Source: Lycium barbarum (lineage: Eukaryota; Streptophyta; Magnoliopsida; Solanales; Solanaceae). Taken from it: a stretch of 64,000 bases of DNA. Below the pieces are notes generated by a model. The model saw nothing but the letters and a program-made list of their open reading frames with translations. It was not told the DNA's origin and searched no databases. The stretch lies in assembly GCF_019175385.1 (NCBI RefSeq), contig NC_083343.1:55884457-55948456 (forward strand). Direction: 5' to 3'. The position numbers were made by a program, and so were the translations under genes. Positions 17,981 to 56,718 of the stretch are shown here, in pieces (positions within the stretch are counted from its first letter, which is position 1; each line of letters starts with the position of its first letter).

Positions 17981-17987
17981 ATGGTGA

Positions 17988-18640
17988 ATGAGTTCCTCGG
18001 AAGAGCTTCTAGGCCTCCCTCTTGAACGGGAGATTGATTTTGCTATTGATGTGTTATCGGATACAAAACCCATATATATTCCTCCCTATGGGATGGCTCC
18101 CGCAGAGTTGAAAGAGTTGAAGGAGCAATTGATGGACTTGCTTGAAAAAGGTTTTATTAGGCCTAGCTCTTCCCCGTGGGGAGCACCCGTATTATTTGTC
18201 TGGAAGAAAGATGGCTCCTTGCGAATGTGCATTGACTATCGACAACTGAATAAAGTGACGATCAAGAACAAATATCCACTCCCAAGGATTGACGACTTAT
18301 TTGATCAATTACAAAGTGCCAAATGGTTTTCAAAGATAGATTTGAGATCCGGGTATCATCAACTACGAGTTTGAGAGAAAGATATTCCTAAGACATCCTT
18401 CAGAACCAGGTACGACCACTTTGAGTTTCGGTAATGTCGTTTGGGCTAACTAACGCACCGGCAGTATTTATGGATATGATGAACAATGTGTTCAAGCCCT
18501 TCATAGATTTATTTGTGATTGTGTTTATCGACGATATCTTGGTATATTCTAGATCCGGGGCAGAACATGCGGATCACTTGCGTACTGTTCTTAGAGTTCT
18601 TCAAACTGGAGAGTTATTTGCCAAATTTTCTTAGTGTAAG
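17988..18640 (+). pseudogene. Element K reverse transcriptase, broken
   Basis: Segments 17988-18374 and 18434-18634 contain the standard Ty3/gypsy RT blocks: [68 protein letters not shown] and the catalytic [12 protein letters not shown] at 18372 lies where B has Arg before EKDIPKT. A frameshift lies between the two segments. TAG at 18632 replaces the Lys of the FSKCEF motif seen in A and B. RT would copy the RNA into cDNA; this copy is inactive. Confidence 0.9.
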
Positions 18641-18646
18641 TTTTGG

Positions 18647-19345
18647 TTGAACTCACTGACTTTTTTGGGGCATATTATTTCAGCTGATGGAATTCGGGTA
18701 GATACCCAAAAGATTGAGGCCGTGAAGACTTGTCCAAGGCCCACAACCCCTACGAAAGTTCGTAGTTTTCTGGGCTTACCAGGTTATTACAGGAGGTTTG
18801 TAGAAGGCTTTTCTTCTATTTCTACACCACTCAAGAAGCTGACCCAGAAATAAGCTAAGCTTCAATGGGCAGATGCTTGTGAACATAGTTTCCAAGAGCT
18901 AAAAGATAGATTAACTTCTGCCCCAGTCCTGACACTTCCAGAGGGATCGAAAGGTTATGTTGTCTATTGTGATGCTTCAGGCGTTGGGCTAGGCTGTATG
19001 TTGATGCAATATGGTAAGGTGATTGCGTATGCTTCAAGGCAGTTACGGAAACATGAGAAAAATTATCCGACCCATGATCTGGAATTGGCTCCAGTGATTC
19101 ACGCATTGAAGCTGTGGAGACATTATTTGTATGGCGTCCATGTTGATATATATACAGATCATAAGAGCCTTCAGTATATCTTCAAGTAGAACGAATTGAA
19201 TTTACAGCAACGGCGATGGTTGGAATTGTTGAAAAACTATCATGTTGACATCCTGTATCATCTCGGGAAAGCAAATATTGTGGCTGATGCTCTTAGTAAT
19301 AGATACATGGGAAGTTTATGCGATGTGCAGCTAGAAAAAAGGGAG
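18647..19345 (+). pseudogene. Element K RNase H domain, broken
   Basis: The region encodes [13 protein letters not shown], the [14 protein letters not shown] linker, then RNase H blocks [30 protein letters not shown] and [11 protein letters not shown], ending with ADALSNR. Acidic residues expected for the catalytic site are partly visible (D in YCDAS, E in DLEL, D in YTDH). Stops at 18851 and 19187 break it. Confidence 0.88.
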
Positions 19346-19390
19346 ATAGGTCGTGACCTCCAGCCGTTAGCTAGCCTAGGAGTTTGAGTA

Positions 19391-20275
19391 GTGGACCCAG
19401 GTAGCATGGGAGCTGTCATTCAAAACTCAGCGGTCTCGTCGCTAGTAGTGGAAGTGAAGGAGCGACAATACGAAGATCTCATGCTAATTCATTACAGAAA
19501 TACACTCCCTCAGAAGGCGAAGTCATCATTTGAGATTTCTGGAGATGGAGTTCTCCGATGCCGAGCAATGTTACGTGTTCCTGATGTTGCAGGACTACGC
19601 TACCAAATATTGAGAGAAGCCCATTTTCCCGTTATTCCGTTCACCCCGGAGCGACGAATATGTATCATGATATTAAATCTATATATTGGTGGAATGGGAT
19701 GAAGAAAGATATAGCGGAATTCGTTGCTCAATGTTCTAACTGTCAGCAAGTGAAAATTGAGCACCAAAAGCCCAGCGGATTGTTGCAAGCTATAGCAATT
19801 CCAACTTGGAAATAGGAAGTAATTAACATGGACTTCATTACAGGCTTACCTCGTTCTCGACGTAAGTATGATTCTATATGGGTGATTTTGGATAGATTTA
19901 CAAAGTCAGCTCATTTCTTACCGGTCAGAGCTACATATGTAGCAGAAGAGTATGCAAAGTTTTATATTAAAGAGATAGTGCGACTTCACGGTATTTCGGT
20001 ATATATTATCTCCGATAGAGGGACTCAATTTACAGCTAATTTTTGAAAATCTTTCCGAGGAGGTTTGGGGACTCAGGTGAGTCTTAGCACGACATTTCAC
20101 CCGCAGACGGACGGACAAGCTGAACGTACCATTCAGACTCTCGAGCATATGCTATAGGTATGTATATTGGATTTTAGAGGTAGTTGGGATGATCGCTTAC
20201 CACTTATTGAATATGCTTATAACAATAGTTATCATTCTAGCATCCAAATGGCCCCGTATGAGGCTTTATATGGGC
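19391..20275 (+). pseudogene. Element K integrase zinc finger and catalytic core, broken
   Basis: The zinc-finger part (19391-19760) ends with CSNCQQVK. The core (19828-20046) shows the first Asp in MDFITGLP and the second in SDRGTQF. The third catalytic residue lies in DGQAERTI near 20115. Broken by TGA at 19385 just upstream, a frame change near 19660, TAG near 19813 and TGA at 20044 (both where other copies have Trp), and TAG near 20155. Integrase inserts the cDNA; the TCAAT duplication around K records its past action. Confidence 0.88.
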
Positions 20276-20279
20276 GAAA

Positions 20280-20915
20280 GTGCAGATCCCCAATTGGGTG
20301 GTTCGAAGTAGGAGAGAGACCAAATTGATAGGCCCAGACTTGGTCCAGCAAGCTATAGAGAAATTCAAGCTTATACAGGATCGATTCTTAGGAGCTCAGG
20401 GTCGTAAAAAATCCTATGCAGATAATCGTCGAAGAGACTTAGAGTTCCAAGTGAAAGATTGGGTATTTTTGAAGCTGTCGCCAATGAAGGGCATCATGAA
20501 ATTTGGCAAGAAGGGAAATCTTAGCCCCCGGTACATTGGACCTTATGAGATTGTACGCAAGGTAGGCCAGGTTACTTACGAATTAGACCTACCTCCCAAT
20601 TTGAAGTCAGTTCACCCAGTTTTCTATGTATCGATACTTCTTAAGTGCATTGCAGATCCTTCTAGAATTGTGCCAATAGGTGATGTCCATGTTACCAAAC
20701 AATTGTCTTATGAAGAATTCCTAAATGCCATTTTAGATAGGCAAGTACGAAATCTCAGAAGCAAAGAGGTAGTTTCAATAAAAGTTTTATGGAGAAATAA
20801 TAATAAAGAGGAAATGACTTGGGAAGCCGAAGAAGACATGAAGCTCAGGTACCCTTATTTATTTTCACCCCCAGAGGAGACCCAGGCAGCGACGCAATTA
20901 TCCTCAGTTATGTAG
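20280..20915 (+). pseudogene. Element K integrase C-terminus with chromodomain (211-aa open frame)
   Basis: This is the longest open frame left in K. It starts within the RSPIGW region after a frameshift, passes through YADNRRRDLEF and the GPY/F segment (YIGPYEIVRKVG), then VHPVFYVSILLK. It ends in a chromodomain (ILDRQVRNLRSKE to WEAEEDMKLRYPYLF, roughly residues 150-200). The chromodomain assigns K to Tekay/Del-type chromoviruses, which are thought to target marked chromatin. It is an isolated remnant, not an independent gene. Confidence 0.88.
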
Positions 20916-38348: not shown

Positions 38349-41300
38349 TGTCACGACCCGACCAGGGGCCGTGACGAGTACCCGATACTTGTACCGAGCA
38401 CCCCTTAGCTATCCTGAATAAGCAGTGCCATATTTTGTTTTTTCTAAACATTAACATTTGCAGTAAACTTTCTAATATCGCGTTACACCAGAACGCGGAC
38501 CATTCGGAATAAAATACATTAAACTGTACATAGCTGACTGTGTATATCTGTCTACGAGCCTCTAGACATAGTACATTTATACAGAGAAAGGGCCGAGTAC
38601 TGTCGCGCCCGAAAATACATACACAAAATAGTACCGGTGAAATAAGGCTCCGGAACAACTGGAGCGCTGTCGAATGCTGCTGATAGGGCACTAGGAATCT
38701 GGTCCGTATACCTGCTGACCTGCGCGGCATGAAACGCAGCGTCCACAAGAAGGGACGTCAGTACGAATAATGTACCGAGTATGTAAGGCATGGAAAACAG
38801 TTCAAGCAGTAACATAAAGTACGATCAATAATAATATCACAGAGTCATAGCGCGTATAACGAGGCAAGAACGTAACCTGTAAGTAGGGAGGCCCCTTTTC
38901 GGGCCGGCTGTCATGTAGACTTGCCTTTCCATCCTTGAAACGTTTCTTTTCATAGGCATAGGACTCAACATTTTCATATTACTTATTCTCGTGTACAGAA
39001 ATAAAACAGTACGTTTCAGTAACGGTATCTTTTGCTTACATTTACAGACGCCGAATACAATCGGCTCCCCCAATCCCCTCCCCAACGATAACCCAACATA
39101 TTACATCACACATGTATCACACATTATATATATATATACAGACGCCGCGTACGGCTCATCCCATATCCCGCGTCCGGGCATCCCGCGTCCAGGATGGAAT
39201 CCAGCTGAATCAGGTGGTGATATAGCAGTGGCCCTTCCCTTTTTCCCCATATACACATACATATACGCTTACTCCTCTTTTATGCATATACATGTCTCAT
39301 ATACAATTTCTTTATCTAGTATACATACATATCCATACACGTTTACTCGCTTTATATACATATATCCTATAAGCACACAAGAGAGCCAAGGAAAATCATG
39401 TATCCATCGGAGTGACGTAAGGTCGGTAACCTCCGATTACAGTACGAAATGCTAGTGATAGCTTTGTCTCACCTAGAAGGAACAAGTATTTTAAAGTGAG
39501 ATTATTAACGGAGAATAGTGTTACAGTAACCAAAAATGAAATCGCAGGCATTTTAGGTGACAGTCATAGGTTTTGGAATCTTAGAAAATAAGATTATAAC
39601 TAGAAGGTATAAATACGATTTAGAAAATTAGTTTATCAATTTAATGTTTACATAAGGTACTTGGCTTAGTCATAGGGTCGTTCCGGTCGTATTTATCATA
39701 GCTACATTCTCTTGCCCGACATTGTCATTATCATTATCATCATAGGGGCACTCCCGTTGGGGTAGTCATAGCACTTATTACTTGGTGACGGAATCGGGAT
39801 CAAAGGCCCCCTTTAGATTCACTGCAAGTACGTTAACCAAGACTATAGGAAAATCCGAGAGTATCGGGCCCACCTCGGGCCGAACGAGGTAGCGTATACA
39901 ATTTACCCATATTACGTGTCATAGAGTTACTTGTATGAGTCTTAGGGTAATCGGGTCCCACTTAGGCAAGTTATAGGGGTCTAGAAGGTCTTTTCATCAT
40001 TTTGCACACTTTCTACTTCAATTCAATTGAACGAAAAGTTGAAAACTTTAGGTACGGATTCCGGGGAACCGGGTTGTCCCCGAGGCTCGTGCCCGACTCA
40101 TTATATCTAAGACATGCCATAGAAAGAAGGGCGAAGCCTTACATACCTCTTTCCGCTCCTTTAGCTACTCCAAATTCACATCACAATCTCGTCGAAATCA
40201 GCGAATTGGTCATTTTTACCAAAACTTTCATTAGTACATTTTGAGTTAGAATCTTAAGGAAGCACTTTGCTACCGAAATTTCGGCAGCATTTCCTCTGTA
40301 AATATACCATCCTCAACATTCAATTTCGTCAAATTCTCATCAAATACAACCCGGGAATTCAAACCCGGCCAAACGGTTAACATAATTCGACAATTACACT
40401 AGCGCTTCACATATTCCAATCAAGGCACATAATATCGATTTGCTACCTCCCTCAAAACTTTACAACTTCAATGAATACAATATCAACCTCATAATATACA
40501 TTCCGATAACCCCATACTAACGTTATTGTCATTCATACATACAAAGAGACATCCCGTTCCATTCACATAGCTCCTAAACAAGTCCCTAATTACAACAACT
40601 TCACTAGAGTCATTATGCATTCATTAACAACACAGAACCCGCAACATAACCACAACCAATACGCTACATAAAATTGACTCATTCCCTTCCATACCCTACC
40701 ACAAGCTCACGGCCACACCTTACACACACATGCACGGTCATACACGCACTTACAACACACGGCCAACATGCATGTATACCACAATTTTTCCAAATTCATT
40801 CAACTTTCATTTTCCACATCTCAATATAGTATTCACAACAACAACAACCAACTACTAGGCAAAATAATTGAAACATAACCCCTACAACTATATACATGCA
40901 CACGGCTATATATTATATTCCTCTACTTCATGGATTTCATCTATTTAAGCATACTACAACACATATAAACCATATAGAACCCATAAACAAGATTGAAACT
41001 CACCTTTCTTCCTCAACTTCTTCACTTGTCTACTCTTGGCAACTTGTATGATTTTGAACTTTCCTTGCTCCAACAACAACTCCACTTTGTTGTGTACCCT
41101 CTAATTAGTTGAATACAATTTTTGGAGGAATTTTACAATTTCTTTCTTGGAATTTTCCTTATGGCCGAATGCCTTGGGGTTTTTGCCCTTCCTTTCTATT
41201 GTTCTTCTTTTCTTGAAAGTTCTAGAGAGTAAGGTGATAAAGATGACTTATTCATCTTATTTATTTCACAATATATTCAATTTTGGGCCTAGCCCATCAA

Positions 41301-41602
41301 TATGGACGGTTGGGCTTATGATTTTCCCTTAAAAAAAATGTCAAGCCCACTTTGTCTTTTGGCTAATTCTTGCAATTCTTGAAAACAATTTTTCCGACTT
41401 CCAATTTGCCCTACGTCTTCCTTCGTATTTCCACGAGTCATGTCGCGAATTCCCCTTTATGCTCTTAACCATTCTCATTGTCTTCACTTCTAAATTTTTC
41501 ATAACCAACTCATGTGCCAAGAAATCATAAAATGGGGCCTTGCTTGTCGTCTTCCCGCGATTGTCTTGAATTATCCAATTGCATAAAATGCGGGATATAA
41601 CA
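38349..41602 (-). repeat. Element C 3' LTR
   Basis: Minus strand reads TGTTATATCCCGC at 41602 and ends GGGTCGTGACA at 38349. It is offset by exactly 5,671 bases from the 5' copy over its first 2.8 kb. Identical short open frames at 38552/44223, 38991/44662 and 40002/45673 are LTR duplicates, not genes. Confidence 0.93.
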
Positions 41603-41638: not shown

Positions 41639-42387
41639 AAACTGGCCTCATAACACAGTATAGTACTTCGGGGAGGTCTCCTTTGTAGACACCTTATGTC
41701 GCTTAGCATGTCCACCTTAGAGGCTTAGGTTGCCCACTTGCGATCTTTACAGTTGTGCTTCTTTCTTGTGGCGTCTGCTGCGTCTATCCCCTCACTAAAC
41801 ATGTTACTGTATGTCGCCATATTAGGAATTCCTTGCCTTAGACAGTGTGGATTCAATATTGGTCCCACCCTGCGACACCTGTACTTTTCTCCTTCATTCC
41901 CAAGGCTTTCTGTTGTCATGGCTTTTCTTTTTCTGTTAGCTTCATCCGTCTCAGCCTATATGGCTCGTATGGGGTTTCTAACCACTTTCCACACCCCAAC
42001 TTACTCTGGGCTGCCTAATTTTACACTCGTCTCTTGTTTCCTCATTTATGAAATTTTCAGCATATTTCCCAGGGGGTCACCCATCATGGAATTACTCCCA
42101 CCTGAGCACGCTTAACCTTGGAACTTTAATGCATTCCGATATCTCGGCGTCAATATTTTTACTTCCGCTTCCCCGTACTACTTATGTCACATAATATGGA
42201 ACAAGTTGAGGTCTCGGCAGTTTTCGAAACGTCCGCGTCACACGTCTTTTCCTTCATTTACGGTTCGGACCTTCGCAATTTCCCGTATTCGCCTTTTTAC
42301 CTATGCGTATGACCATTTTTTCGTCCAAATTCTCAGTGTGTTCAGTAATACAGAGGACAGTATAGGGAAAAATAAAATTTGAGTTAA
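41639..42387 (-). other. Element C post-gag spacer (noncoding)
   Basis: About 750 bases between the gag stop and the inverted repeat. No protease, RT or integrase motif is visible on either strand. It contains the 5S-like block at 42063-42128. The open frame on the other strand (41738-42115) has no recognisable domain. Confidence 0.8.
42063..42128 (-). ncRNA. 5S rRNA-like block in element C spacer
   Basis: On the minus strand (gag sense) the block contains GTTAAGCGTGCT, then GGGAGTA, then GATGGGTGACCCCCTGGGAA. This is the order and spacing of the plant 5S rRNA internal control region (A box, intermediate element, C box). Weaker similarity to the preceding 5S part continues to about 42128. 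The first third of 5S is not clear and no T-run terminator follows, so this is a derived fragment, not a 5S gene. Confidence 0.72.
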
Positions 42388-43806
42388 TTAACACACGTCT
42401 ATCACAGAAAATACTGAAAAATTACCTGTGGCCGCGTCTGCGGAAGGCTCAGGGTCCTGTCGTCCTGTCAGTGCATATAGGCGGTGCGGAGGACCGGCTG
42501 AACTAGGTGCTCCTCCCCTACCTCGGCCGCGGCCTGCTGGAGCCTGAGAAGTCTGTCCACGAGGGCGCACGGTCGACGTCGAACCGATCGCTGATCCGGC
42601 TGGCTGAGTTTGGCCTCCTCCATCCTTTAGCGGGCAATCACGTACAAAATGGTCAGTCCGACCACAGGAAAAACAACCACCGGTGTCTAAGTAGCACTGC
42701 CCAGAGTGTGGCTTGCCACACCGAGCACATCGTGGTGGGGGAATCCCCGTCCTGCCGGAATCAATTCTGTACTGGGAATCCGAAGCTCTGGCACCCTGAC
42801 CTGGTCCTGAATAAGTAGGGCGATCAAATCCCCTATCCACAAATCGAGGTGGGGCACTGGCCGCTGATTGGCCTGAATACCTGGATTGCTCTTGTGCTTG
42901 CCCCCCTCTATACTCGCTTCTAGCCCTGGAAAATCTGCCTCTTTTTCTGGAACCCCTTTCTGGATAGCTCTCCTCTCTCCGTGGCTGATACTGCTCTTCC
43001 AGATTTTGGGCGTGGGCCTGGATGCGGGTAATAGTCATCCCGTCCTGGAGTGAGGCCGTCAAACACTCCTTAACCAAATGTGGCCCTAGCCCACTTACAA
43101 ACCGGTGCACATGGTCTCCCCTATCAGCTATCAGGGCGGGGGCATACCTGGCTAGCGAGTTGAAACGAAGACTGTATTCTCGAACGCTCATATTTCCCTG
43201 TCTCAGGTTCAAGAACATATCGGCTCGAGCCCGTCGAACCTCTGGCGGTAGGAAATGTCGTAGGAAAGCCTCAGTGAACTCCTGCCAAACCGGAGGGGGT
43301 GCATTTGCTCCCCTCGATGATATCCAGTTACCGTACCACAGAACTGCCACATCCCGCAGCCTGTATGAAGCCAACTCTACGGACTCCGTATCCGAAGCAT
43401 GTATGATCCTCAGAGTCCTCAGCATCTCGTCTATAAAACCCTGCGGGTCCTCCTCTGGCTTCGATCCATAGAACTCTGGCGGCTTCAGGGTAATAAAGTC
43501 TCGGGCCCTTGCGCTTACCGCCCTGCCGCCTGTGTCCACATCTTGCCGCTGAGCTTGTGCGGCGACTAGCTGGGTCAATAACTGGATGGCCTCTGCCATC
43601 TGCTGGCCCGGAGCTGCTGGCGGTGGAACTGGAGGTGCGGGGGCTGGAGCTGGAGCTCTTCCCTGCTCTGCCGGTGCAGGGGGTGCAGGAACAGTCTGAG
43701 GGGGAGCTTCATTGTGAGATTCTTCTTCGTCTAGCTCCTGTTCAACTCTGCGGGCCGCCACCCCCTTGGCTTTCTCGGTCGTCGTAGCCTTTCTCTTCGG
43801 CGGCAT
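42388..43806 (-). CDS. Element C Gag polyprotein, intact, 472 aa
   Basis: Structural protein of a Ty3/gypsy-type particle (capsid and RNA-binding nucleocapsid). The start is set at the ATG at 43806 (MPPKRK), four codons inside the longest frame, because K and D gags start MPVK/MPPK and all follow TTTCAG. Order: Pro/Ala-rich region (about 35-75); gag capsid domain with VELASYRLRDVAVLWY, LPPEVRRARAD and SLARYAPAL (about 145-275); Arg-rich linker; two zinc knuckles (CARCGKPHSGQC and CFSCGRTDHFVRDC, near 42731-42638); Gly/Arg-rich tail. It ends soon after GRQDPE with FSVFS, where K continues into protease. No stops or frameshifts. Needs pol in trans. Confidence 0.92.
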   Translation of the reverse strand: MPPKRKATTTEKAKGVAARRVEQELDEEESHNEAPPQTVPAPPAPAEQGRAPAPAPAPPVPPPAAPGQQMAEAIQLLTQLVAAQAQRQDVDTGGRAVSARARDFITLKPPEFYGSKPEEDPQGFIDEMLRTLRIIHASDTESVELASYRLRDVAVLWYGNWISSRGANAPPPVWQEFTEAFLRHFLPPEVRRARADMFLNLRQGNMSVREYSLRFNSLARYAPALIADRGDHVHRFVSGLGPHLVKECLTASLQDGMTITRIQAHAQNLEEQYQPRREESYPERGSRKRGRFSRARSEYRGGQAQEQSRYSGQSAASAPPRFVDRGFDRPTYSGPGQGARASDSQYRIDSGRTGIPPPRCARCGKPHSGQCYLDTGGCFSCGRTDHFVRDCPLKDGGGQTQPAGSAIGSTSTVRPRGQTSQAPAGRGRGRGGAPSSAGPPHRLYALTGRQDPEPSADAATGNFSVFSVIDVC

Positions 43807-44019: not shown

Positions 44020-46855
44020 AGTCACGACCCGACCAGGGGCCGTGACGAGTACCCGATACTTGTACCGAGCACCCCTTAGCTATCCTGAATAAGCAGTGCG
44101 ATATTTTTTTTTTTCTAAACATTAACATTTGCAGTAAACTTTCTAATATCGCGTTACACCAGAACGCGGACCATTCGGAATAAAATACATTAAACTGTAC
44201 ATAGCTGACTGTGTATATCTGTCTACGAGCCTCTAGACATAGTACATTTATACAGAGAAAGGGCCGAGTACTGTCGCGCCCGAAAATACATACACAAAAT
44301 AGTACCGGTGAAATAAGGCTCCGGAACAACTGGAGCGCTGTCGAATGCTGCTGATAGGGCACTAGGAATCTGGTCCGTATACCTGCTGACCTGCGCGGCA
44401 TGAAACGCAGCGTCCACAAGAAGGGACGTCAGTACGAATAATGTACCGAGTATGTAAGGCATGGAAAACAGTTCAAGCAGTAACATAAAGTACGATCAAT
44501 AATAATATCACAGAGTCATAGCGCGTATAACGAGGCAAGAACGTAACCTGTAAGTAGGGAGGCCCCTTTTCGGGCCGGCTGTCATGTAGACTTGCCTTTC
44601 CATCCTTGAAACGTTTCTTTTCATAGGCATAGGACTCAACATTTTCATATTACTTATTCTCGTGTACAGAAATAAAACAGTACGTTTCAGTAACGGTATC
44701 TTTTGCTTACATTTACAGACGCCGAATACAATCGGCTCCCCCAATCCCCTCCCCAACGATAACCCAACATATTACATCACACATGTATCACACATTATAT
44801 ATATATATACAGACGCCGCGTACGGCTCATCCCATATCCCGCGTCCGGGCATCCCGCGTCCAGGATGGAATCCAGCTGAATCAGGTGGTGATATAGCAGT
44901 GGCCCTTCCCTTTTTCCCCATATACACATACATATACGCTTACTCCTCTTTTATGCATATACATGTCTCATATACAATTTCTTTATCTAGTATACATACA
45001 TATCCATACACGTTTACTCGCTTTATATACATATATCCTATAAGCACACAAGAGAGCCAAGGAAAATCATGTATCCATCGGAGTGACGTAAGGTCGGTAA
45101 CCTCCGATTACAGTACGAAATGCTAGTGATAGCTTTGTCTCACCTAGAAGGAACAAGTATTTTAAAGTGAGATTATTAACGGAGAATAGTGTTACAGTAA
45201 CCAAAAATGAAATCGCAGGCATTTTAGGTGACAGTCATAGGTTTTGGAATCTTAGAAAATAAGATTATAACTAGAAGGTATAAATACGATTTAGAAAATT
45301 AGTTTATCAATTTAATGTTTACATAAGGTACTTGGCTTAGTCATAGGGTCGTTCCGGTCGTATTTATCATAGCTACATTCTCTTGCCCGACATTGTCATT
45401 ATCATTATCATCATAGGGGCACTCCCGTTGGGGTAGTCATAGCACTTATTACTTGGTGACGGAATCGGGATCAAAGGCCCCCTTTAGATTCACTGCAAGT
45501 ACGTTAACCAAGACTATAGGAAAATCCGAGAGTATCGGGCCCACCTCGGGCCGAACGAGGTAGCGTATACAATTTACCCATATTACGTGTCATAGAGTTA
45601 CTTGTATGAGTCTTAGGGTAATCGGGTCCCACTTAGGCAAGTTATAGGGGTCTAGAAGGTCTTTTCATCATTTTGCACACTTTCTACTTCAATTCAATTG
45701 AACGAAAAGTTGAAAACTTTAGGTACGGATTCCGGGGAACCGGGTTGTCCCCGAGGCTCGTGCCCGACTTATTATATCTAAGACATGCCATAGAAAGAAG
45801 GGCGAAGCCTTACATACCTCTTTCCGCTCCTTTAGCTACTCCAAATTCACATCACAATCTCGTCGAAATCTGCGAATTGGTCATTTTTACCAAAACTTTC
45901 ATTAGTACATTTTGAGTTAGAATCTTAAGGAAGCACTTTGCTACCGAAATTTCGGCAGCATTTCCTCTGTAAATATACCATCCTCAACATTCAATTTCGT
46001 CAAATTCTCATCAAACACAACCCGGGAATTCAAACCCGGCCAAACGGTTAACATAATTCGACAATTACACTAGCGCTTCACATATTCCAATCAAGGCACA
46101 TAATATCGATTTGCTACCTCCCTCAAAACTTTACAACTTCAATGAATACAATATCAACCTCATAATATACATTCCGATAACCCCATACTAACGTTATTGT
46201 CATTCATACATACAAAGAGACATCCCGTTCCATTCACATAGCTCCTAAACAAGTCCCTAATTACAACAACTTCACTAGAGTCATTATGCATTCATTAACA
46301 ACACAGAACCCGCAACATAACCACAACCAATACGCTACATAAAATTGACTCATTCCCTTCCATACCCTACCACAAGCTCACGGCCACACCTTACACACAC
46401 ATGCACGGTCATACACGCACTTACAACACACGGCCAACATGCATGTATACCACAATTTTTCCAAATTCATTCAACTTTCAATTTCCACATCTCAATATAG
46501 TATTCACAACAACAACAACCAACTACTAGGCAAAATAATTGAAACATAACCCCTACAACTATATACATGCACACGGCTATATATTATATTCCTCTACTTC
46601 ATGGATTTCATCTATTTAAGCATACTACAACACATATAAACCATATAGAACCCATAAACAAGATTGAAACTCACCTTTCTTCCTCAACTTCTTCACTTGT
46701 CTACTCTTGGCAACTTGTATGATTTTGAACTTTCCTTGCTCCAACAACAACTCCACTTTGTTGTGTACCCTCTAATTAGTTGAATACAATTTTTGGAGGA
46801 ATTTTACAATTTGTTTCTTGGAATTTTCCTTATGGCCGAATGCCTTGGGGTTTTT
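44020..46855 (-). repeat. Element C 5' LTR, larger part
   Basis: Matches 38349-41185 with constant offset and only a few substitutions; its first base is A where the 3' LTR has T. Interrupted at 46855 by D and completed by 56301-56718. Confidence 0.92.
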
Positions 46856-49800
46856 TGTTACATCCGACATTTTTGTTCATCCGGAAAATTCAAGATAAAA
46901 TGACTTGTGATGAATAAGGCCACTATTGGACCTTACTTGGTATGCATGTGTAGGTTATGAATACACTGATGTGGAATTACGAAAGGTGGCCAAGGGCAAT
47001 AATTGGAATTTTGGAAACTTGTTCCATGAATTACCAAAATTAGCCACCACTTTTGGGCCAAAAAAATAATAATAATAACAACAAAACAAAGGCCCAACTT
47101 AAGGGGGCCCAACCGGCCACCATAGGTCCAAGCCAATGGAATAATTAAATTCCATGGGAAATTATATATTGGATAAGTGTGAGGAATATTCAAGAAGCAA
47201 GAACAAATCAAGAAAGAAAAAAAAGAAGAGAGAGGGTTCGGGTTTGGAGAGAAAAAAGGAAAGAAAAGAAAGAAAATTTTTGGAGCCAATCCCTTGGTTT
47301 AAAGAGTTCATCTCTTGAGAGATTATTGCTAAGCACAAGATTCTCTACAAGTTGATATAAAGATTGTGGCAAGAAAACAATTTCATCCTCCAAGTGAAGA
47401 ACTTGAAGAAAGGTAAGGATTTCATGCTTTTGTTGTGTTATAAATGGTATATGTATGTTGTAGTATGTGTGAATGAATGAAAAATATGGAAATTTGGTGT
47501 GTTGGAATTTTTGGATGTGTGGCCGAATGCATATAGGGTTATTGCATGATTTTAATGGTTTGAATTCTTGTGTAAGTTAGTTGTAGTGTGGTGGAAATTG
47601 TATTAGAAATGAAAGTGGAATGAACTAGTGAAATTTGGAAAATATAGCATGTGGCCGTGTGGTGTGTGTTGGTGTTGGAAGGTGAATTGAATCTTGTTAG
47701 CATGTTAATTATGTTGTTATGGAAGATTGGTTATTAAGTTGTTGAAGGAAATTATTGAACTTTGTTATGATTTGTGTATAAGTGAAAATGAAAGTGTTAA
47801 GAGGCAAATTATGCTTATGACAATGAACTTGGAATATAAAAATGTGTTGATGAGTTTGCATGTTGAAAGTTAGGAAGGGATTGGAAAAGTAGTGACTTGA
47901 TGGAAAGTTGAATGTTTGTGAATTTTATGAATATCTTGTGAATATTATGTGAACATGTTATGGATTCCTCCGATGTGTGTCGTAATGATTTTGATGGATA
48001 ATGGATATGAAAATAATAAGTTTTGGTTGGAAATGTAAGCTTGAAACGAAAGATGATTCGTCGTGTCGAAGGGTGGCTAATAATGCCATAGCGTATGATT
48101 TAGTGGTTATTGATGTTTGTTGTTGTTTGGATGTCTCCTCTGGGTTGTTGTGTTGCTAAGTTGAGCCGAGCTAAGTCTCGGGGATGTCGTATATACAGAG
48201 GAAATGCTGCCGAAATTTCGGTAGGCAATTATGTGTAAAGATAGAGTATTGAAAGAATGAAACTAACCAAATGGTAAACTTGACCATTTCCAGATTTTGG
48301 GCGAAATTTGGATTGACGCCCAGAGAGAATAAGGCGCCATCGAGGTATGTGAAGCACTTCTCTACGTTCCTAGGCATGTTCTGGATGTGGTAGGCTCGAC
48401 CGCGAGCCTTAAGTCCGACTCCGTTCCCCGGAATTCGAGACGGAAAAACGCTCCAATTCCTTCAATTCAATTGAAACTATTTTATTGCAAATTGCCCTTA
48501 AAGTGAGATTTTGTACAAAACTTCCCCAAACGGAGTCGGAACACTTCCGAATGAGTATGGGTGACCTCATAAGGTCAATCATCAGTAATTTACGTATGTA
48601 GCCTCGGGTTGGTCCGAGGTGGGCCCACAAGGCCCGATACTTCCGGTACGATTTTTAAAATACTTCTGTTTTGGTCCGATCTTCTCCAAAAACTTCTGAA
48701 CTATTATTTTGTGAATATTATGGATATTTTTGTGTAATTTATACAATATTATTTCTGAACATCCGAGCATCCCACTCTGATAATCTGTCGTGCCTTCCTA
48801 ATTAGGATATGAGCGCGTGCTATGCATACTATCTGGATATTCTGATTTTGGCTCGCCGTTTGGCACCCTTCTGATTGATCGAGTCTGTATGTTGAGTCTG
48901 TAGGTAGGTGGTTTCTCATTTATCGATTCGTGTCTGTCTCAATGCATTCTTTCACTGCGACCCGGGCCAGGTTCTGTTATCGTGCATATTTCTCTGCATT
49001 GTTCACCGCGTCCCTCGGCGTACGGGCCGGGATCTGTATGTCTGTATGATCTGTGTATGGGGATGGCGGCCAGGATGGCATATGATCTGATATGATTCTG
49101 TCTGTCCACCGCGTCCCGTACTAAGAGGGCCGGGTTCTGTTACCGCGCCCCCAGACAGGGCCGGGATCTGTATGAATATATGCGTGTGCCATCTGTATTT
49201 ATAAAGCACACGTCTTTGTATGATTTTGTGTGACTCTGTGCTACTCTGCATGCATAATTCTGTCCGTCATACTACTGGCTGTCTGTCCGTCTATGTTACG
49301 ACTATTTCTGTTTGTCCGTATGGCTTCTGCTTCTGTATGTCCGTATGGATTCAGATTCTGCTCGTCTGTCCGTATTATGATTCCGTCTGTCTGTCCGAAC
49401 TATAATTCTGTTCATTTGTGTAAAACGATTCTATATGTCTGTCTGGATCATAATTCTGTCCGTTAGTTTGACTTATGATTTTGCCCGTTATATTTCTGTG
49501 ACTCTAGTTCGGACTATGTTTATATCTGTTACGTTTCTGCTTTACATACTCGGTACATTTTCCGTACTGACCCCCGTTCTTCGGGGGCTGCGCTACATGC
49601 CCGCAGGTACAGACGCACCAGGTGATACGCCGCCCGCGTAGGTTTCCGACTCTGCTTTTTGAAGAGCTCCTTTGACCCGGAGCATATCTTTTGGTATATA
49701 TTTTCTGTCTTCTGTGTACTCCGTATGTGTGTATATTCTGGGTACGGCGGGGCCCTGTCCCGTCATATGATTCTGTATGTCTGTAGAGGCCTGTAGATGG

Positions 49801-50044
49801 ATATGTGGGTTACGGGTTTCGTCTGTATGTTAGCCTCATCGGCTTATCTGTAAATGTCTGTATGTTCAGGTATATATGTATATATACGCATGGTTGCGCG
49901 CGTGCCGTATTTGCATCGGCCTATTTCCGTACTTCTGTTTTGAAACGAAAAAAAAAATCTGTATGATTCGAATTCGATCAGATAGGTACGCATGGGTATC
50001 AAGTTAGGGTACCAGTCGCGGCCCACGGGGTTTGGGTCGTGACA
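46856..50044 (+). repeat. Element D 5' LTR
   Basis: Opens TGTTACATCCGACA, ends GGGTCGTGACA. It contains degenerate GCGTCC...GGGCCGGGATCTGTATG units (about 49008-49170) and a long TCTGTCTGTCCGTATGATT-rich stretch (about 49240-49540). No gene seen. Confidence 0.93.
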
Positions 50045-50048
50045 AAAG

Positions 50049-50060
50049 TGGTATCAGAGC
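50049..50060 (+). promoter_or_regulatory. Element D primer binding site (tRNA-iMet)
   Basis: Perfect TGGTATCAGAGC four bases after the 5' LTR. Confidence 0.95.
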
Positions 50061-50247: not shown

Positions 50248-51678
50248 ATGCCTCCGAAGAAGGCAACAGCTGCCCAGAAGGGCAAGGCCAGGATTGAGGC
50301 AGGAGAGACCAGCCAGGCCCCGAGGGTTACCAGGGCCAGTGTGCACCCTGCACTTGAGGATGTGCCCCCGTCGTCTGGATCTGTTACACCCCCCTTGCCG
50401 GAGGATATCAGAGCAGCAGGAGCTGCTAATCGGGAGACGGCTCCACCGCAAGCCCCTGAGGTTCCAGTGCCCGAGCCTCCAGCTCCACAGGCAGGGGCGG
50501 AGGGTAGGGCCATGCGAGATGCGGTTCAATTATTGACCACATTGATGGCGGAGCAGGTTCGCAGGCATGGATTTGGGGGTGGTCGTGCGGATAGGTACGA
50601 GAGCTCCAGGGCTCGTGAGTTTCTGACATGTAATCCTCCAGAATTCTCCGGGGCAAAACCTGAGGAGGATCCCCAGGAGTTCATTAGAAAGATGGAGAGC
50701 ACACTACGACTGATTAAGGCTTTGCCGACTGAGTCTGTGGAGTTGGCTTCGTATCGATTATATGAGGTGGCAGCAAATTGGTATGAGTCTTGGCAGCTCT
50801 CCAGGGGTGACGATGCTCCCCCAGCGGTATGGGCAGAATTTACTAAGGCCTTTCTTGACCATTTTCTACCACCAGAGCTACGAAGAGCTAGGGTCGATCG
50901 GTTCTTGAACTTGAGACAGAATGGTAGGAGTGTTCGCGAGTACAGCCTAGAGTTCGATTCATTGGCTAGGTATGCACCCACCATAGTAGCTGAGATGGCC
51001 GACAGGGTGCACAGGTATGTGATGGGACTGGACTCTTATCTGATTGATGGTTGTTTGGCTGTGGCTGCTCAGCCAGGGATGCATGTAGCCCGGGTACAGG
51101 CACACGCCCAGGGCATGGAGGACCGACGTAGGGAACGTCGGCCTGATAGGGGTTACGACAGGGGCCAGCCTAAGAGAGCCAGATCGGCTGGGTATTCAGA
51201 GGGATTTCAGAGCGAGCCTTCCCAGCGGCAGAGAAATAGGTATTCGTCCCAGCCAGCCTACAGTACGCCCCCACAGTTCGCAGGACAGAGCTCCAGAGGT
51301 CCCGGTCAGTCGAGGCCACCCATACCCCCGTGTTCTTACTGTGGGAGGCCCCACCCGGGGGAGTGTTACCGCGCTACGGGCGCTTGTTATTTTTGTGGGA
51401 GCCCAGACTATCGAGTCAGAGAGTGCCCACTTAAGGGCAGTTCGGGTTCAGCCCGGCCTGCTGGGTCCGTTGCAGGCTCATCTTCTCCTTCAGCGGCCAT
51501 GCGCCCTGCGGGGCGAGGAGCACCAGCACCAGCACCAGCGCCAGCGGGTCGTGGCAGAGGACGTGGTGCAGCTTCTGGTTACAGCGGTCCTTCGAACCGC
51601 GTGTTTGCTTTAACCGGCCGGCAGGACCCAGGAGCGTCTTCGAGTGCACGCCCAGGTACGCCAGCCAATCCTTTTTGA
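50248..51678 (+). CDS. Element D Gag polyprotein, intact, 476 aa
   Basis: Capsid/nucleocapsid protein. Start at ATG 50248 (MPPKKATAAQ), the first ATG after TTTCAG; an in-frame GTG precedes it. Order: Pro/Ala-rich N-terminal region to about residue 95; capsid domain with FSGAKPEEDPQEF, VELASYRLYEVAANWYESW, LPPELRRARVD and SLARYAPTIV (about 130-260); basic linker (PKRARS); zinc knuckles CSYCGRPHPGEC and CYFCGSPDYRVREC; Pro/Ala/Arg-Gly tail. The second knuckle has Tyr (codon TAT at 51409) in place of the zinc-binding His kept in C and K. The frame ends after FALTGRQDPG, at the point where protease would begin. No frame breaks. Confidence 0.92.
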   Translation: MPPKKATAAQKGKARIEAGETSQAPRVTRASVHPALEDVPPSSGSVTPPLPEDIRAAGAANRETAPPQAPEVPVPEPPAPQAGAEGRAMRDAVQLLTTLMAEQVRRHGFGGGRADRYESSRAREFLTCNPPEFSGAKPEEDPQEFIRKMESTLRLIKALPTESVELASYRLYEVAANWYESWQLSRGDDAPPAVWAEFTKAFLDHFLPPELRRARVDRFLNLRQNGRSVREYSLEFDSLARYAPTIVAEMADRVHRYVMGLDSYLIDGCLAVAAQPGMHVARVQAHAQGMEDRRRERRPDRGYDRGQPKRARSAGYSEGFQSEPSQRQRNRYSSQPAYSTPPQFAGQSSRGPGQSRPPIPPCSYCGRPHPGECYRATGACYFCGSPDYRVRECPLKGSSGSARPAGSVAGSSSPSAAMRPAGRGAPAPAPAPAGRGRGRGAASGYSGPSNRVFALTGRQDPGASSSARPGTPANPF

Positions 51679-51924
51679 GAAATGTATGTATGGATAAGTT
51701 TGTATTTTGCTGAATTACGTGATCTTATACTTCTGGGTATTAGAAATAGTAAGATAAATGTTAATTTGGTGGATACCGAGATTCAGAAAAGCAATATGGT
51801 AATGGTATGACTTAGCCGGGGGTGGGACCCGCTACCAAAATTTTTCCGAAAATCTGCGAAGACCCCGATTTACTCTAAAATTACGTGACAAAGGTCGTGA
51901 GGGGCAATCGACGAAATTATATTA

Positions 51925-52011
51925 GCCCTAACGTGTCGAAATGCATGAAAGTTTCGGAGTTAAGCGTGCTCAGGCCATAGCAATTCTGGGATGGGTGACC
52001 CCCTGGGAAGT
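51925..52011 (+). ncRNA. 5S rRNA-like block in element D spacer
   Basis: The core 51953-52011 reads CGGAGTTAAGCGTGCT ... GGGATGGGTGACCCCCTGGGAAGT. The 42 bases from GTTAAGC to GGTGACC have the same length as in C and in plant 5S rRNA as I remember it. Weaker colinear similarity extends left to about 51925. A TTTTT tract (possible Pol III terminator) follows nine bases after the block. Same sense as gag. The intermediate element is less conserved than in C. Confidence 0.75.
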
Positions 52012-52369
52012 AATGCAAAGTTTTTGCTCAAGTGTAGGTATGACCAATATAAATGAAAATTTGGGGTAATCTAAAGGTGAAGGAGAATGTGTGGAGTAAT
52101 CAGAGCCTTTACAAAAACCACACAGTCCGACGCGGATTAAATGGGCAAAAAGAAAAGATGCGATACCGCTCGGAAAATTGAACGAATCTGGATAACAGTT
52201 AGCGACGACCCGAATGTTATCAGGGGATAGGAAAAAGCCCAATTACATCATAAGTTAGTCTGGTATGACGATGGTTGAAAAAGGAAAGAGAGTATGGATA
52301 GTAGGGAAGAAGAGAGATAAGAAGGGCGAGTAAGAAGAATCTTTGAAAGAGTCGATAAGCGACACCTAA

Positions 52370-53069: not shown

Positions 53070-53106
53070 AACATTCGAGGACGAATGTTCTAAAAGGGGG
53101 GGAGAA
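53070..53106 (+). promoter_or_regulatory. Element D inverted repeat and polypurine tract
   Basis: AACATTCGAGGACGAATGTT at 53070-53089, then AAAAGGGGGGGAGAA immediately before the 3' LTR at 53107. Confidence 0.9.
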
Positions 53107-56100
53107 TGTTACATCCGACATTTTTGTTCATCCGGAAAATTCAAGATAAAATGACTTGTGATGAATAAGGCCACTATTGGACCTTACTTGGTATGCATGT
53201 GTAGGTTATGAATACACTGATGTGGAATTACGAAAGGTGGCCAAGGGCAATAATTGGAATTTTGGAAACTTGTTCCATGAATTACCAAAATTAGCCACCA
53301 CTTTTGGGCCAAAAAAATAATAATAATAACAACAAAACAAAGGCCCAACTTAAGGGGGCCCAACCGGCCACCATAGGTCCAAGCCCATGGAATAATTAAA
53401 TTCCATGGGAAATTATATATTGGATAAGTGTGAGGAATATTCAAGAAGCAAGAACAAATCAAGAAAGAAAAAAAAGAAGAGAGAGGGTTCGGGTTTGGAG
53501 AGAAAAAAGGAAAGAAAAGAAAGAAAATTTTTGGAGCCAATCCCTTGGTTTAAAGAGTTCATCTCTTGAGAGATTATTGCTAAGCACAAGATTCTCTACA
53601 AGTTGATATAAAGATTGTGGCAAGAAAACAATTTCATCCTCCAAGTGAAGAACTTGAAGAAAGGTAAGGATTTCATGCTTTTGTTGTGTTATAAATGGTA
53701 TATGTATGTTGTAGTATGTGTGAATGAATGAAAAATATGGAAATTTGGTGTGTTGGAATTTTTGGATGTGTGGCCGAATGCATATAGGGTTATTGCATGA
53801 TTTTAATGGTTTGAATTCTTGTGTAAGTTGGTTGTAGTGTGGTGGAAATTGTATTAGAAATGAAAGTGGAATGAACTAGTGAAATTTGGAAAATATAGCA
53901 TGTGGCCGTGTGGTGTGTGTTGGTGTTGGAAGGTGAATTGAATCTTGTTAGCATGTTAATTATGTTGTTATGGAAGATTGGTTATTAAGTTGTTGAAGGA
54001 AATTATTGAACTTTGTTATGATTTGTGTATAAGTGAAAATGAAAGTGTTAAGAGGCAAATTATGCTTATGACAATGAACTTGGAATATAAAAATGTGTTG
54101 ATGAGTTTGCATGTTGAAAGTTAGGAAGGGATTGGAAAAGTAGTGACTTGATGGAAAGTTGAATGTTTGTGAATTTTATGAATATCTTGTGAATATTATG
54201 TGAACATGTTATGGATTCCTCCGATGTGTGTCGTAATGATTTTGATGGATAATGGATATGAAAATAATAAGTTTTGGTTGGAAATGTAAGCTTGAAACGA
54301 AAGATGATTCGTCGTGTCGAAGGGTGGCTAATAATGCCATAGCGTATGATTTAGTGGTTATTGATGTTTGTTGTTGTTTGGATGTCTCCTCTGGGTTGTT
54401 GTGTTGCTAAGTTGAGCCGAGCTAAGTCTCGGGGATGTCGTATATACAGAGGAAATGCTGCCGAAATTTCGGTAGGCAATTATGTGTAAAGATAGAGTAT
54501 TGAAAGAATGAAACTAACCAAATGGTAAACTTGACCATTTCCAGATTTTGGGCGAAATTTGGATTGACGCCCAGAGAGCATAAGGCGCCATCGAGGTATG
54601 TGAAGCACTTCTCTACGTTCCTAGGCATGTTCTGGATGTGGTAGGCTCGACCGCGAGCCTTAAGTCCGACTCCGTTCCCCGGAATTCGAGACGGAAAAAC
54701 GCTCCAATTCCTTCAATTCAATTGAAACTATTTTATTGCAAATTGCCCTTAAAGTGAGATTTTGTACAAAACTTCCCCAAACGGAGTCGGAACACTTCCG
54801 AATGAGTATGGGTGACCTCATAAGGTCAATCATCAGTAATTTACGTATGTAGCCTCGGGTTGGTCCGAGGTGGGCCCACAAGGCCCGATACTTCCGGTAC
54901 GATTTTTAAAATACTTCTGTTTTGGTCCGATCTTCTCCAAAAACTTCTGAACTATTATTTTGTGAATATTATGGATATTTTTGTGTAATTTATACAATAT
55001 TATTTCTGAACATCCGAGCATCCCACTCTGATAATCTGTCGTGCCTTCCTAATTAGGATATGAGCGCGTGCTATGCATACTATCTGGATATTCTGATTTT
55101 GGCTCGCCGTTTGGCACCCTTCTGATTGATCGAGTCTGTATGTAGAGTCTGTAGGTAGGTGGTTTCTCATTTATCGATTCGTGTCTGTCTCAATGCATTC
55201 TTTCACTGCGACCCGGGCCAGGTTCTGTTATCGTGCATATTTCTCTGCATTGTTCACCGCGTCCCTCGGCGTACGGGCCGGGATCTGTATGTCAGTATGA
55301 TCTGTGTATGGGGATGGCGGCCAGGATGGCATATGATCTGATATGATTCTGTCTGTCCACCGCGTCCCGTACTAAGAGGGCCGGGTTCTGTTACCGCGCC
55401 CCCAGACAGGGCCGGGATCTGTATGAATATATGCGTGTGCCATCTGTATTTATAAAGCACACGTCTTTGTATGATTTTGTGTGACTCTGTGCTACTCTGC
55501 ATGCATAATTCTGTCCGTCATACTACTGGCTGTCTGTCCGTCTATGTTACGACTATTTCTGTTTGTCCGTATGACTTCTGCTTCTGTATGTCCGTATGGA
55601 TTCAGATTCTGCTCGTCTGTCCGTATTATGATTCCGTCTGTCTGTCCGAACTATAATTCTGTTCATTTGTGTAAAACGATTCTATATGTCTGTCTGGATC
55701 ATAATTCTGTCCGTTAGTTTGACTTATGATTTTGCCCGTTATATTTCTGTGACTCTAGTTCGGACTATGTTTATATCTGTTACGTTTCTGCTTTACATAC
55801 TCGGTACATTTTCCGTACTGACCCCCGTTCTTCGGGGGCTGCGCTACATGCCCGCAGGTACAGACGCACCAGGTGATACGCCGCCCGCGTAGGTTTCCGA
55901 CTCTGCTTTTTGAAGAGCTCCTTTGACCCGGAGCATATCTTTTGGTATATATTTTCTGTCTTCTGTGTACTCCGTATGTGTGTATATTCTGGGTACGGCG
56001 GGGCCCTGTCCCGTCATATGATTCTGTATGTCTGTAGAGGCCTGTAGATGGATATGTGGGTTACGGGTTTCGTCTGTATGTTAGCCTCATCGGCTTATCT

Positions 56101-56295
56101 GTAAATGTCTGTATGTTCAGGTATATATGTATATATACGTATGGTTGCGCGCGTGCCGTATTTGCATCGGCCTATTTCCGTACTTCTGTTTTGAAACGAA
56201 AAAAAAAATCTGTATGATTCGAATTCGATCAGATAGGTACGCATGGGTATCCAGTTAGGGTACCAGTCGCGGCCCACGGGGTTTGGGTCGTGACA
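53107..56295 (+). repeat. Element D 3' LTR
   Basis: Same length and nearly identical to 46856-50044. Differences that I see correspond to about 47135, 47577, 48327, 48893, 49044, 49322, 49890 and 49998 of the 5' copy. Confidence 0.93.
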
Positions 56296-56300
56296 TTTTT

Positions 56301-56718
56301 GCCCTTCCTTTCTATTGTTCTTCTTTTCTTGAAAGTTCTAGAGAGTAAGGTGATAAAGATGACTTATTCATCTTATTTATTTCACAATATATTCAATTTT
56401 GGGCCTAGCCCATCAATATGGACGGTTGGGCTTATGATTTTCCCTTAAAAAAAATGTCAAGCCCACTTTGTCTTTTGGCTAATTCTTGCAATTCTTGAAA
56501 ACAATTTTTCCGACTTCCAATTTGCCCTACGTCTTCCTTCGTATTTCCACGAGTCATGTCGTGAATTCCCCTTTATGCTCTTAACCATTCTCATTGTCTT
56601 CACTTCTAAATTTTTCATAACCAACTCATGTGCCAAGAAATCATAAAATGGGGCCTTGCTTGTCGTCTTCCCGCGATTGTCTTGAATTATCCAATTGCAT
56701 AAAATGCGGGATATAACA
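56301..56718 (-). repeat. Element C 5' LTR, remainder
   Basis: Continues the C LTR after D (GCCCTTCCTTTCTATTG, as at 41188) to the terminus GGGATATAACA at 56718, followed by GGGAT. Confidence 0.92.

What the first reader, a model, noticed from the sequence alone, without database searches (positions are those of the whole stretch)
51925..52025. 5S rRNA-like block with Pol III-type promoter order in the gag-only element D
The spacer between gag and the polypurine tract contains GTTAAGCGTGCT and GGGATGGGTGACCCCCTGGGAAGT with the spacing of the 5S internal control region, sense to gag, followed by a T5 tract. 5S-derived sequence is known in LTRs of Cassandra TRIMs, but I know of no description inside the internal region of a gag-coding gypsy-type element. 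It could recruit TFIIIA/TFIIIC, be transcribed by Pol III, or give a 5S-like fold to the genomic RNA.
Basis: partly seen in the sequence, partly recalled or inferred. Interest (0 to 1): 0.88.

Follow-up and report, generated by a model that had tools for sequence, protein, structure and literature searches.

The report
5S gene promoter inside non-autonomous retrotransposons
Retrotransposons in this plant genome (likely a wolfberry, Lycium), probably thousands of copies, carry between their long terminal repeats a piece of the 5S ribosomal RNA gene whose promoter boxes are better conserved than the sequence around them, and it would likely let the plant's RNA polymerase III machinery bind inside the element.

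Summary
The block is real and 5S-derived: RF00001 gives 35.4 bits (gathering 38; E 7.8e-6 on 351 nt), and sister copies in the genome reach 54.4 and 51.0. It is not unique to D. A second gag-only element in the window (C, minus strand; Gag 47% identical) has it at the same place, and its two-box pattern occurs 9,705 times in the window's own 1.67-Gb genome (tandem 5S genes included). Of 20 copies sampled, 18 lie between direct repeats, 6 follow a gag, and none has a reverse transcriptase match between the repeats; two keep an integrase remnant. In a sample chosen without the block, box A (0.95) and box C (0.98) exceed flanks and 5' half (0.65-0.79). Copies match the host 5S gene at boxes A and C (0.96-0.99), not at its 3' end (0.28). 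The 5S fold is not kept: no covariation above shuffles, helices I and V broken. So what is kept is the DNA control region rather than the RNA. Best reading: an embedded TFIIIA-type Pol III promoter in the internal region of non-autonomous Ty3/gypsy-like elements. Cassandra and TRIMp3 carry it in their LTRs; I found no report of an internal one. Pol III use is untested.

The parts
46851..46855 (.). 5-bp flanking repeat (TTTTT), 5' side of element D
   Evidence: matching TTTTT after the 3' LTR; it lies in a T-run, so weak on its own
46856..50044 (+). 5' LTR of element D (TG...CA, 3189 bp)
   Evidence: 99.75% identical to the 3' LTR, 8 mismatches
50049..50060 (+). primer binding site TGGTATCAGAGC (complement of initiator Met tRNA 3' end, recalled)
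   Evidence: begins 5 nt after the last base of the LTR
50248..51678 (+). gag of element D, open; Retrotrans_gag; no protease, RT or integrase after it
51877..51908 (+). conserved motif directly upstream of the block
   Evidence: -80..-61 from box A has mean pairwise identity 0.73 over 22 elements
51909..52027 (+). 5S-derived block of element D; +1 equivalent about 51909
51959..51970 (+). box A, GTTAAGCGTGCT (about +51)
51975..51983 (+). region of the intermediate element (IE)
   Evidence: IE limits recalled
51988..52011 (+). box C and tail, GGGATGGGTGACCCCCTGGGAAGT; from GATGGG on identical to the host 5S genes
52021..52025 (+). T5 tract, possible Pol III terminator (about +113 to +117)
53092..53106 (+). 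polypurine tract of element D
53107..56295 (+). 3' LTR of element D
56296..56300 (.). 5-bp flanking repeat (TTTTT), 3' side of element D
42388..43806 (-). gag of element C, 47% identical to Gag of D, no pol match after it
42048..42161 (-). 5S-derived block of element C
   Evidence: 22.7 bits
42105..42116 (-). box A of element C
42064..42085 (-). box C and tail of element C (GATGGGTGACCCCCTGGGAAAT)
38350..41602 (-). 3' LTR of element C
44021..46855 (-). 5' LTR of element C, one part; element D is inserted in this LTR
   Evidence: 99.75% identical to C's 3' LTR over 2835 bp
56296..56716 (-). 5' LTR of element C, the other part, beyond element D
   Evidence: 99.76% identical over 421 bp

Best explanation
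The block is a 5S rRNA gene-derived piece that non-autonomous Ty3/gypsy-like elements carry between their LTRs, whose box A and box C are conserved while its RNA fold is not, so it likely works as an internal 5S-type promoter that the host's TFIIIA and TFIIIC would bind. Shown: 5S homology from +1 to about +101 and none found to the 5S gene spacer; sense orientation; the same module in gag-bearing and gag-less elements; box A to box C spacing of 42 nt as in the host 5S gene; boxes more conserved than flanks; box C with tail in D identical to the host genes. Inferred: capture through RNA (the similarity starts at +1 without spacer), which could have been 5S rRNA itself, a 5S-headed SINE or a Cassandra-like piece; and descent of the elements from gag-pol elements by loss of pol. 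Predicted: TFIIIA, then TFIIIC, TFIIIB and Pol III assemble, starting near 51909 in D and ending at the T5 (about 113-117 nt), or near +295 in a group of gag-less elements where the first T4 lies. Such a transcript lacks the PBS, so it would not be the genomic RNA. Its benefit to the element is the least certain step; I favour a local Pol III/TFIIIC complex that keeps the silenced element accessible for its Pol II LTR promoter.
For: Family and placement: 9,705 pattern matches, 0 for the reversed control. Of 20 loci taken at every fifth of the first 100 places, 18 lie between direct repeats (longest 1.4 kb or more in 15, 0.5-0.8 kb in 3), 17 have a PBS upstream on the same strand, 6 have gag just upstream, 0 of 20 have a reverse transcriptase match between the repeats. 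5S homology: 54.4, 51.0, 39.6 and 38.9 bits, at or above the gathering score in 4 of 13 loci scanned. Conservation not conditioned on the boxes: 20 elements picked by PBS, 10 with a block in the stretch fetched; box A exact in 9 of 10, GATGGGTGACC exact in 9 of 10; boxes with C tail 0.93 against 0.73 for 5' half and flanks (p 1.2e-7, columns not independent). Against the host 5S gene: box A 0.99, C 0.96, +98..+101 0.95, but +23..+49 0.56, +62..+66 0.49, +102..+119 0.28. DNA rather than RNA: paired cells 65.2% against 65.3% in shuffles; consensus fold -3.3 kcal/mol; the real 5S gene's lowest-energy fold is the 5S one, those of D and C are not. Spacing: 99 of the 100 listed matches are 42 nt, the other 40.
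Against: No transcript, ChIP or binding data were available. The pattern sample is conditioned on exact boxes. In the PBS sample 10 of 20 showed no block in the 650 nt fetched, so it may be lost often. IE is kept less well (0.73 to the gene; 0.79, no better than the flank). The first 22 positions of the 5S part, outside the control region, are also rather well kept (0.75 to the gene; one of the best 22-nt windows), which a pure promoter does not explain. A motif upstream of +1 is conserved and unexplained. A Pol III complex inside the element could hinder Pol II. T-runs are not at a constant place: T4 or more at +112/113 in 6 of 22.
Confidence: 0.57

Rival explanations
1. The block acts as RNA: a 5S-like fold in the genomic RNA binds ribosomal protein L5 or TFIIIA (as the plant 5S mimic exon and some viroids do, recalled) and helps export, splicing control or packaging.
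For: Helix III cells 82% paired and helix II 73%, more than when slid (helix III 24-61%, helix II 21-63% on the 22-row alignment). The inner parts of helices IV/V are paired in 96-100% of cells, though they overlap box C. The 5' half, which includes helix II and III strands, is kept at 0.56-0.75 identity to the gene.
Against: No excess of paired cells or of compensatory changes over shuffles (311 of 500 shuffles reach the observed share of pairs). Helix I 43% and the outer helix V 41% paired. The lowest-energy folds of D (z +1.2), C (z -0.8) and even the closest copy, L017 (z +1.6), are not the 5S fold, while the real gene's is. The 3' end of 5S is gone.
Confidence: 0.15
2. A hitchhiking relic: a 5S fragment was caught once by an ancestral element and spreads because the element spreads; the boxes look conserved by sampling or by conversion from the 5S genes.
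For: Tree and flanks point to one shared module of about 450 nt. Half of the PBS-chosen elements show no block in the stretch fetched. The C box equals the host's current one, which conversion would also give.
Against: Boxes stand out also in the sample not chosen by the block. Conversion would restore the whole 5S part, not two boxes with a variable gap of fixed length.
Confidence: 0.2
3. A DNA-level protein site other than a working promoter: TFIIIA or TFIIIC binds without Pol III and serves as a boundary, tether or nuclear-position signal.
For: Boxes kept, but the place of the T-run and the 5S 3' end not. Internal position far from any place that could give a genomic transcript.
Against: The start region is kept better than the rest of the 5' half (+1..+22 0.75 against 0.56), which binding alone would not need. 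No direct data.
Confidence: 0.08

Closest known systems
Cassandra TRIMs (5S promoter in the LTRs; Maiwald et al. 2024 PMC10853983, outline, passages and one section seen; Kalendar et al. 2020 PMC7215508, passages seen)
   Same: Non-autonomous LTR elements with a 5S-derived stretch containing box A, IE and box C; variable letters of fixed length between the boxes; C box like the host gene's; tandem arrays.
   Different: There the 5S part is in both LTRs of elements under about 1 kb with no coding capacity. Here it is between the LTRs, repeats are mostly 2.6-3.9 kb, and some elements encode Gag.
Ajax, Helenus and the TRIMp3 concept (Kojima 2024, PMC10886601, outline and passages seen)
   Same: In Ajax, a partial 5S sequence covering the promoter only, with no canonical fold, in an LTR element.
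   Different: LTR location and TRIM size; Ajax is from nemerteans; the word gag does not occur in the text.
TR-GAG elements (gag-only LTR elements; recalled, seen here only as a term in the listing)
   Same: LTRs, PBS, PPT and gag without pol, as in elements C and D.
   Different: No 5S block recalled for them; D is larger than the size recalled for TR-GAGs.
LARDs (large retrotransposon derivatives; named in passages of PMC7215508)
   Same: Large LTR elements with a conserved non-coding internal domain, as in the gag-less copies here.
   Different: No 5S control region in a LARD seen among the papers listed (titles and starts of abstracts).
SINE3-type, 5S-headed SINEs (described in passages of PMC10886601)
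   Same: A 5S 5' part kept for its promoter.
   Different: These are non-LTR elements; here the piece lies inside an LTR element. A possible source of it.

Membership tests
5S rRNA gene (RF00001) | Covariance-model score above the gathering cut-off | tested here: not met
   D 35.4, C 22.7 bits against 38; sister copies L017, L024, L027, L022 pass, 4 of 13 loci scanned
5S rRNA gene (RF00001) | Canonical fold and 3' end | tested here: not met
5S-type internal control region | Box A, IE and box C at 5S spacing | tested here: met
   IE weaker than the boxes
5S-type internal control region | TFIIIA binding and Pol III transcription | not testable with these tools
   no binding or RNA data
Cassandra / TRIMp3 | Small-RNA promoter inside the LTRs | tested here: not met
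   block between repeats in 18 of 20 sampled loci; no repeat pair detected around it in L011 and L022; D block between its LTRs
Cassandra / TRIMp3 | TRIM size, no coding capacity | tested here: not met
   D: LTRs of 3189 bp and an open gag
Cassandra / TRIMp3 | PBS and PPT of an LTR element, no reverse transcriptase | tested here: met
TR-GAG | LTRs, PBS, PPT, gag only | tested here: met
   for C and D; not for the gag-less copies
TR-GAG | Small size (below about 4 kb, recalled) | tested here: not met
   D spans 9.4 kb
LARD | Large LTRs, no protein-coding capacity | tested here: inconclusive
   9 of 11 gag-less loci with a PBS have no sense ORF of 100 aa between PBS and +1200; but L025 and L028 keep an integrase remnant further on; not met by C and D
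Ty3/gypsy chromovirus, Tekay/Del-like | Gag of the Ty3/gypsy type | tested here: met
   Retrotrans_gag in C and D; Ty3_capsid above its cut-off in C, just below in D; Gag of gag-pol elements is similar
Ty3/gypsy chromovirus, Tekay/Del-like | Integrase with chromodomain, RT phylogeny | tested here: inconclusive
   no pol match in C or D; integrase C-terminal remnants after the block in L025 and L028, with 1-2 stops, and 26-32-residue traces in L011, L016, L020, L027 (E 1e-5 to 1e-4)

The most novel reading that the evidence does not exclude
A large, so far undescribed lineage of plant LTR retrotransposons runs on two promoters: a Pol II promoter in giant LTRs for the genomic RNA, and a captured 5S-type Pol III promoter in the internal region that makes a short sense RNA or holds the element's chromatin open. 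It sits where pol was lost, is still there in lineages that lost gag, matches the host's own 5S promoter, and amounts to thousands of dispersed 5S control regions that could titrate TFIIIA.
Probability: 0.3. Interest if true: 0.87.

Novelty: new variant of a known kind. Interest (0 to 1): 0.72.

Why it matters
In the papers seen here, 5S-type promoters in LTR elements belong to small TRIMs, where the promoter sits in the LTR and so can explain replication. An internal 5S control region cannot make the genomic RNA, so its conservation asks what else a Pol III promoter or TFIIIA site does for a retrotransposon: anti-silencing, a short RNA, or nuclear position. The case is testable, because copies with and without gag, and probably with and without the block, exist side by side in one genome. 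It also warns annotation and FISH users: dispersed 5S-like signals here can be retrotransposons, and a scan for RF00001 reports some of them above its cut-off.

Tried and rejected
Viral contigs by pattern and by Gag, and genome contigs by pattern: nothing, so presence outside this genome could not be tested. A terminator-based reading (a 5S-length RNA in all families) was dropped: T4 or more at +112/113 in 6 of 22. A 5S rDNA insertion with its spacer was rejected: no spacer homology (best E 0.55). An RNA-fold reading was demoted. The first PBS sample (0 blocks in 20; 14 with gag, 13 of them with a pol match) is only a view of gag-pol type elements, because my pattern asked for an A at position 18, which excludes the PBS context of some block-bearing elements. 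That gag was lost several times while the module stayed (L010, L013, L018 nest among gag-bearing copies) is true of the sample but was ascertained on the block, so it is weak evidence for selection. L054 was left out of alignment A1 because it lacks part of the stretch between the boxes (31 of 32 candidates, 30 distinct). The count 9,705 includes the tandem 5S genes (44 copies scored near C6:25.57-25.59 Mb); 2 of the first 100 places have a 5S-like AGTAGTA between the boxes. On re-checking I found that my first reading, 'no pol in any of the 20', was too wide: L025 and L028 carry an integrase C-terminal remnant between block and 3' LTR; I now say no reverse transcriptase.

Full report
What was checked. 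The two-box pattern occurs once in the window and in 0 of 100 shuffles. RF00001 aligns over its full length at 35.4 bits, just below the curated cut-off of 38, with E 7.8e-6 for 351 nt and 0.0014 for the window. Element D is a complete gag-only element: LTRs of 3189 bp with 8 differences, PBS, open gag, PPT, TTTTT on both sides. It sits in the 5' LTR of a second gag-only element, C, on the minus strand.

The second copy. A relaxed search for box C finds one more site, at 42064-42087 on the minus strand. Its box A lies 272 nt after the gag ORF end of element C; in D the distance is 281 nt. The two Gags are 47% identical over 448 aligned positions. Between the two spacers, the 60-nt window 51949-52008 is 80% identical, while windows that do not touch the 5S-like region are at 28-58%, the highest being the stretch just upstream (the part of D that is missing in C left aside). 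On its own the C block is not a significant Rfam hit (22.7 bits, E 0.018 on 351 nt, 3.2 on the window).

The genome. The window's own assembly has 1.67 Gb in 164 contigs. The named relatives of Gag are Solanaceae with one exception (Primulina), the best of them Lycium barbarum, so a Lycium is inferred. The two-box pattern has 4,906 + 4,799 matches and none for the reversed control; the tandem 5S genes match it too, so 9,705 is an upper figure for the elements. Of the 100 places listed, 99 have 42 nt from box A to the end of the C-box pattern, as in the host gene, although the pattern allowed 37 to 45. I fetched 10 kb around every fifth of these 100 places, all on contig C1 (20 loci). In 18 of 20 the block lies between direct repeats, the longest being 1.4-4.4 kb in 15 and 0.5-0.8 kb in 3 (L017, L024, L028); none was detected around it in L011 and L022. 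17 of 20 have the PBS upstream on the same strand; 6 of 20 have gag between PBS and block (L009, L011, L012, L019, L023, L026).

Pol. No reverse transcriptase match lies between the repeats in any of the 20. L025 and L028 keep an integrase C-terminal stretch of about 0.5-0.6 kb, with 1-2 stops, between the block and the 3' LTR, and L011, L016, L020 and L027 a trace of 26-32 residues of its end (E 1e-5 to 1e-4). This says that the elements descend from gag-pol elements and that the block stands where most of pol was lost. L025 looks like a tandem unit, so its detected repeats include this remnant. Of the 11 gag-less loci with a PBS, 9 have no sense ORF of 100 aa from the PBS to 1.2 kb past box A. 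A profile of the block finds no copy in the pol-bearing stretches of the window (16169-20912 plus, 33842-31062 minus) nor in 20 PBS-chosen loci, of which 14 have gag, 13 of them with a pol match (that PBS pattern excludes the PBS context of some block-bearing elements, and only 2.35 kb after the PBS was seen). Whether a fully autonomous element with the block exists was not tested.

Origin. Gag-bearing and gag-less elements share a homologous module of about 450 nt with the block in its middle. Two copies, L017 and L024, are 0.91 and 0.90 identical to the host 5S gene over its first 101 positions and score 54.4 and 51.0 bits; D is at 0.72 and C at 0.66. The likeness starts at +1 and ends at about +101; the 5S spacer shows none (best E 0.55). 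This suggests, but does not show, capture through RNA.

Conservation. To avoid choosing by the boxes, I picked 20 elements by an LTR-end/PBS pattern (3,899 matches, control 0) and fetched only the stretch where the block should lie. Ten of 20 have it. In these ten, box A is exact in nine and GATGGGTGACC in nine. Mean pairwise identity is 0.95 in box A, 0.98 in box C and 0.84 in the C tail, against 0.54 between IE and C, 0.76 in the gap after box A, 0.79 in IE, 0.77-0.79 in the 5' flank and 5' half of the 5S part, and 0.72 and 0.65 in the 3' flank; boxes with tail (0.93) against 5' half and flanks (0.73) give p 1.2e-7, with columns that are not independent. IE by itself does not stand out there. 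In 22 elements (20 chosen by the pattern, with C and D), the C tail, which the pattern does not fix, is at 0.90 against 0.55-0.60 in the near flanks. Against the host gene, 31 blocks keep box A 0.99, C 0.96 and +98..+101 0.95, but IE 0.73, +1..+22 0.75, +23..+49 0.56, +62..+66 0.49 and +102..+119 0.28 (20 of the 31 rows were chosen by exact boxes, D by the finding, C by a relaxed box C, 9 by PBS).

RNA or DNA. With the 5S structure laid on the 31 blocks (30 distinct), 65.2% of cells pair against 65.3% in shuffles; pairs with changes on both sides are 9 against 9.1. Helix I is paired in 43% and the outer helix V in 41% of cells, helix II in 73%, helix III in 82%. The consensus fold is -3.3 kcal/mol. 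The lowest-energy fold of the real 5S gene of this genome is the 5S one; those of D, C and even L017 are not (none of the four is clearly more stable than its shuffles). So selection, where it is seen, follows the DNA boxes. This is the pattern described for Cassandra, where promoter boxes are kept and letters between them vary without larger indels (passages of PMC10853983).

Mechanism. Established knowledge (recalled): TFIIIA reads box A, IE and box C of 5S genes and brings TFIIIC, TFIIIB and Pol III. Inference: the block does the same inside the element. In D a transcript from about 51909 would end at the T5 after some 113-117 nt; in 8 of 22 elements, all gag-less, the first T4 is at +295 to +297. 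Neither contains the PBS, so neither is the genomic RNA. What the element gains is open; I favour accessibility of a silenced element, with low certainty.

Comparison and novelty. Cassandra and the TRIMp3 elements carry such promoters in LTRs of small elements (PMC10886601, PMC10853983, PMC7215508; passages and one section seen). Most subscription papers are not in that library, and TR-GAG and LARD sources were not read. I rate it a new variant of a known kind.

Noticed in passing
G000 C5:69.797-69.822 Mb and C5:39.271-39.285 Mb: Gag-D copies stand in tandem: five at about 5.84-kb steps and three at 6.29-kb steps, like LTR-internal-LTR arrays reported for Cassandra.
   Followed up: no
G000, 89 scored Gag-D copies: The 89 best candidates that were scored are 97-100% identical over all 478 residues; 76 of 89 have no stop inside (counted), so the family probably spread recently.
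   Followed up: partly
window 51877-51908 and the same place in 22 elements: A motif just before the 5S start is conserved (0.73 at -80..-61 from box A) though it is not 5S spacer. Unexplained; it could be a start-site element.
   Followed up: partly
L017, L024: Two gag-less copies hold a nearly full 5S 5' part and pass Rfam's cut-off; genome annotation would likely call them 5S genes.
   Followed up: partly
L010, L013, L018: Gag-less copies nest among gag-bearing ones; gag is missing or replaced up to about -0.13 to -0.18 kb from box A while the PBS side and the module remain.
   Followed up: yes
L025 (+3110..+3679), L028 (+3439..+3976), positions from box A: Integrase C-terminal remnants with 1-2 stops between the block and the 3' LTR; shorter traces in L011, L016, L020, L027. 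They hint that the block entered before or while pol was lost.
   Followed up: partly
L014, L015, L016, L020, L021, L025, L027, L028: The first T4 after the block lies at +295 to +297 in these 8 of 22 elements, all gag-less; shared descent or a real end point.
   Followed up: no
window 4856-4944 and 1222-1298: Weak miRNA-family hits below the cut-offs on both strands, probably simple repeats.
   Followed up: no
proteins P0001 and P0002: The closest Gags (94% and 86%) come from short unnamed ENA contigs of 1.6-1.8 kb, the size of assembled transcripts; they may show expression of gag-only elements.
   Followed up: no
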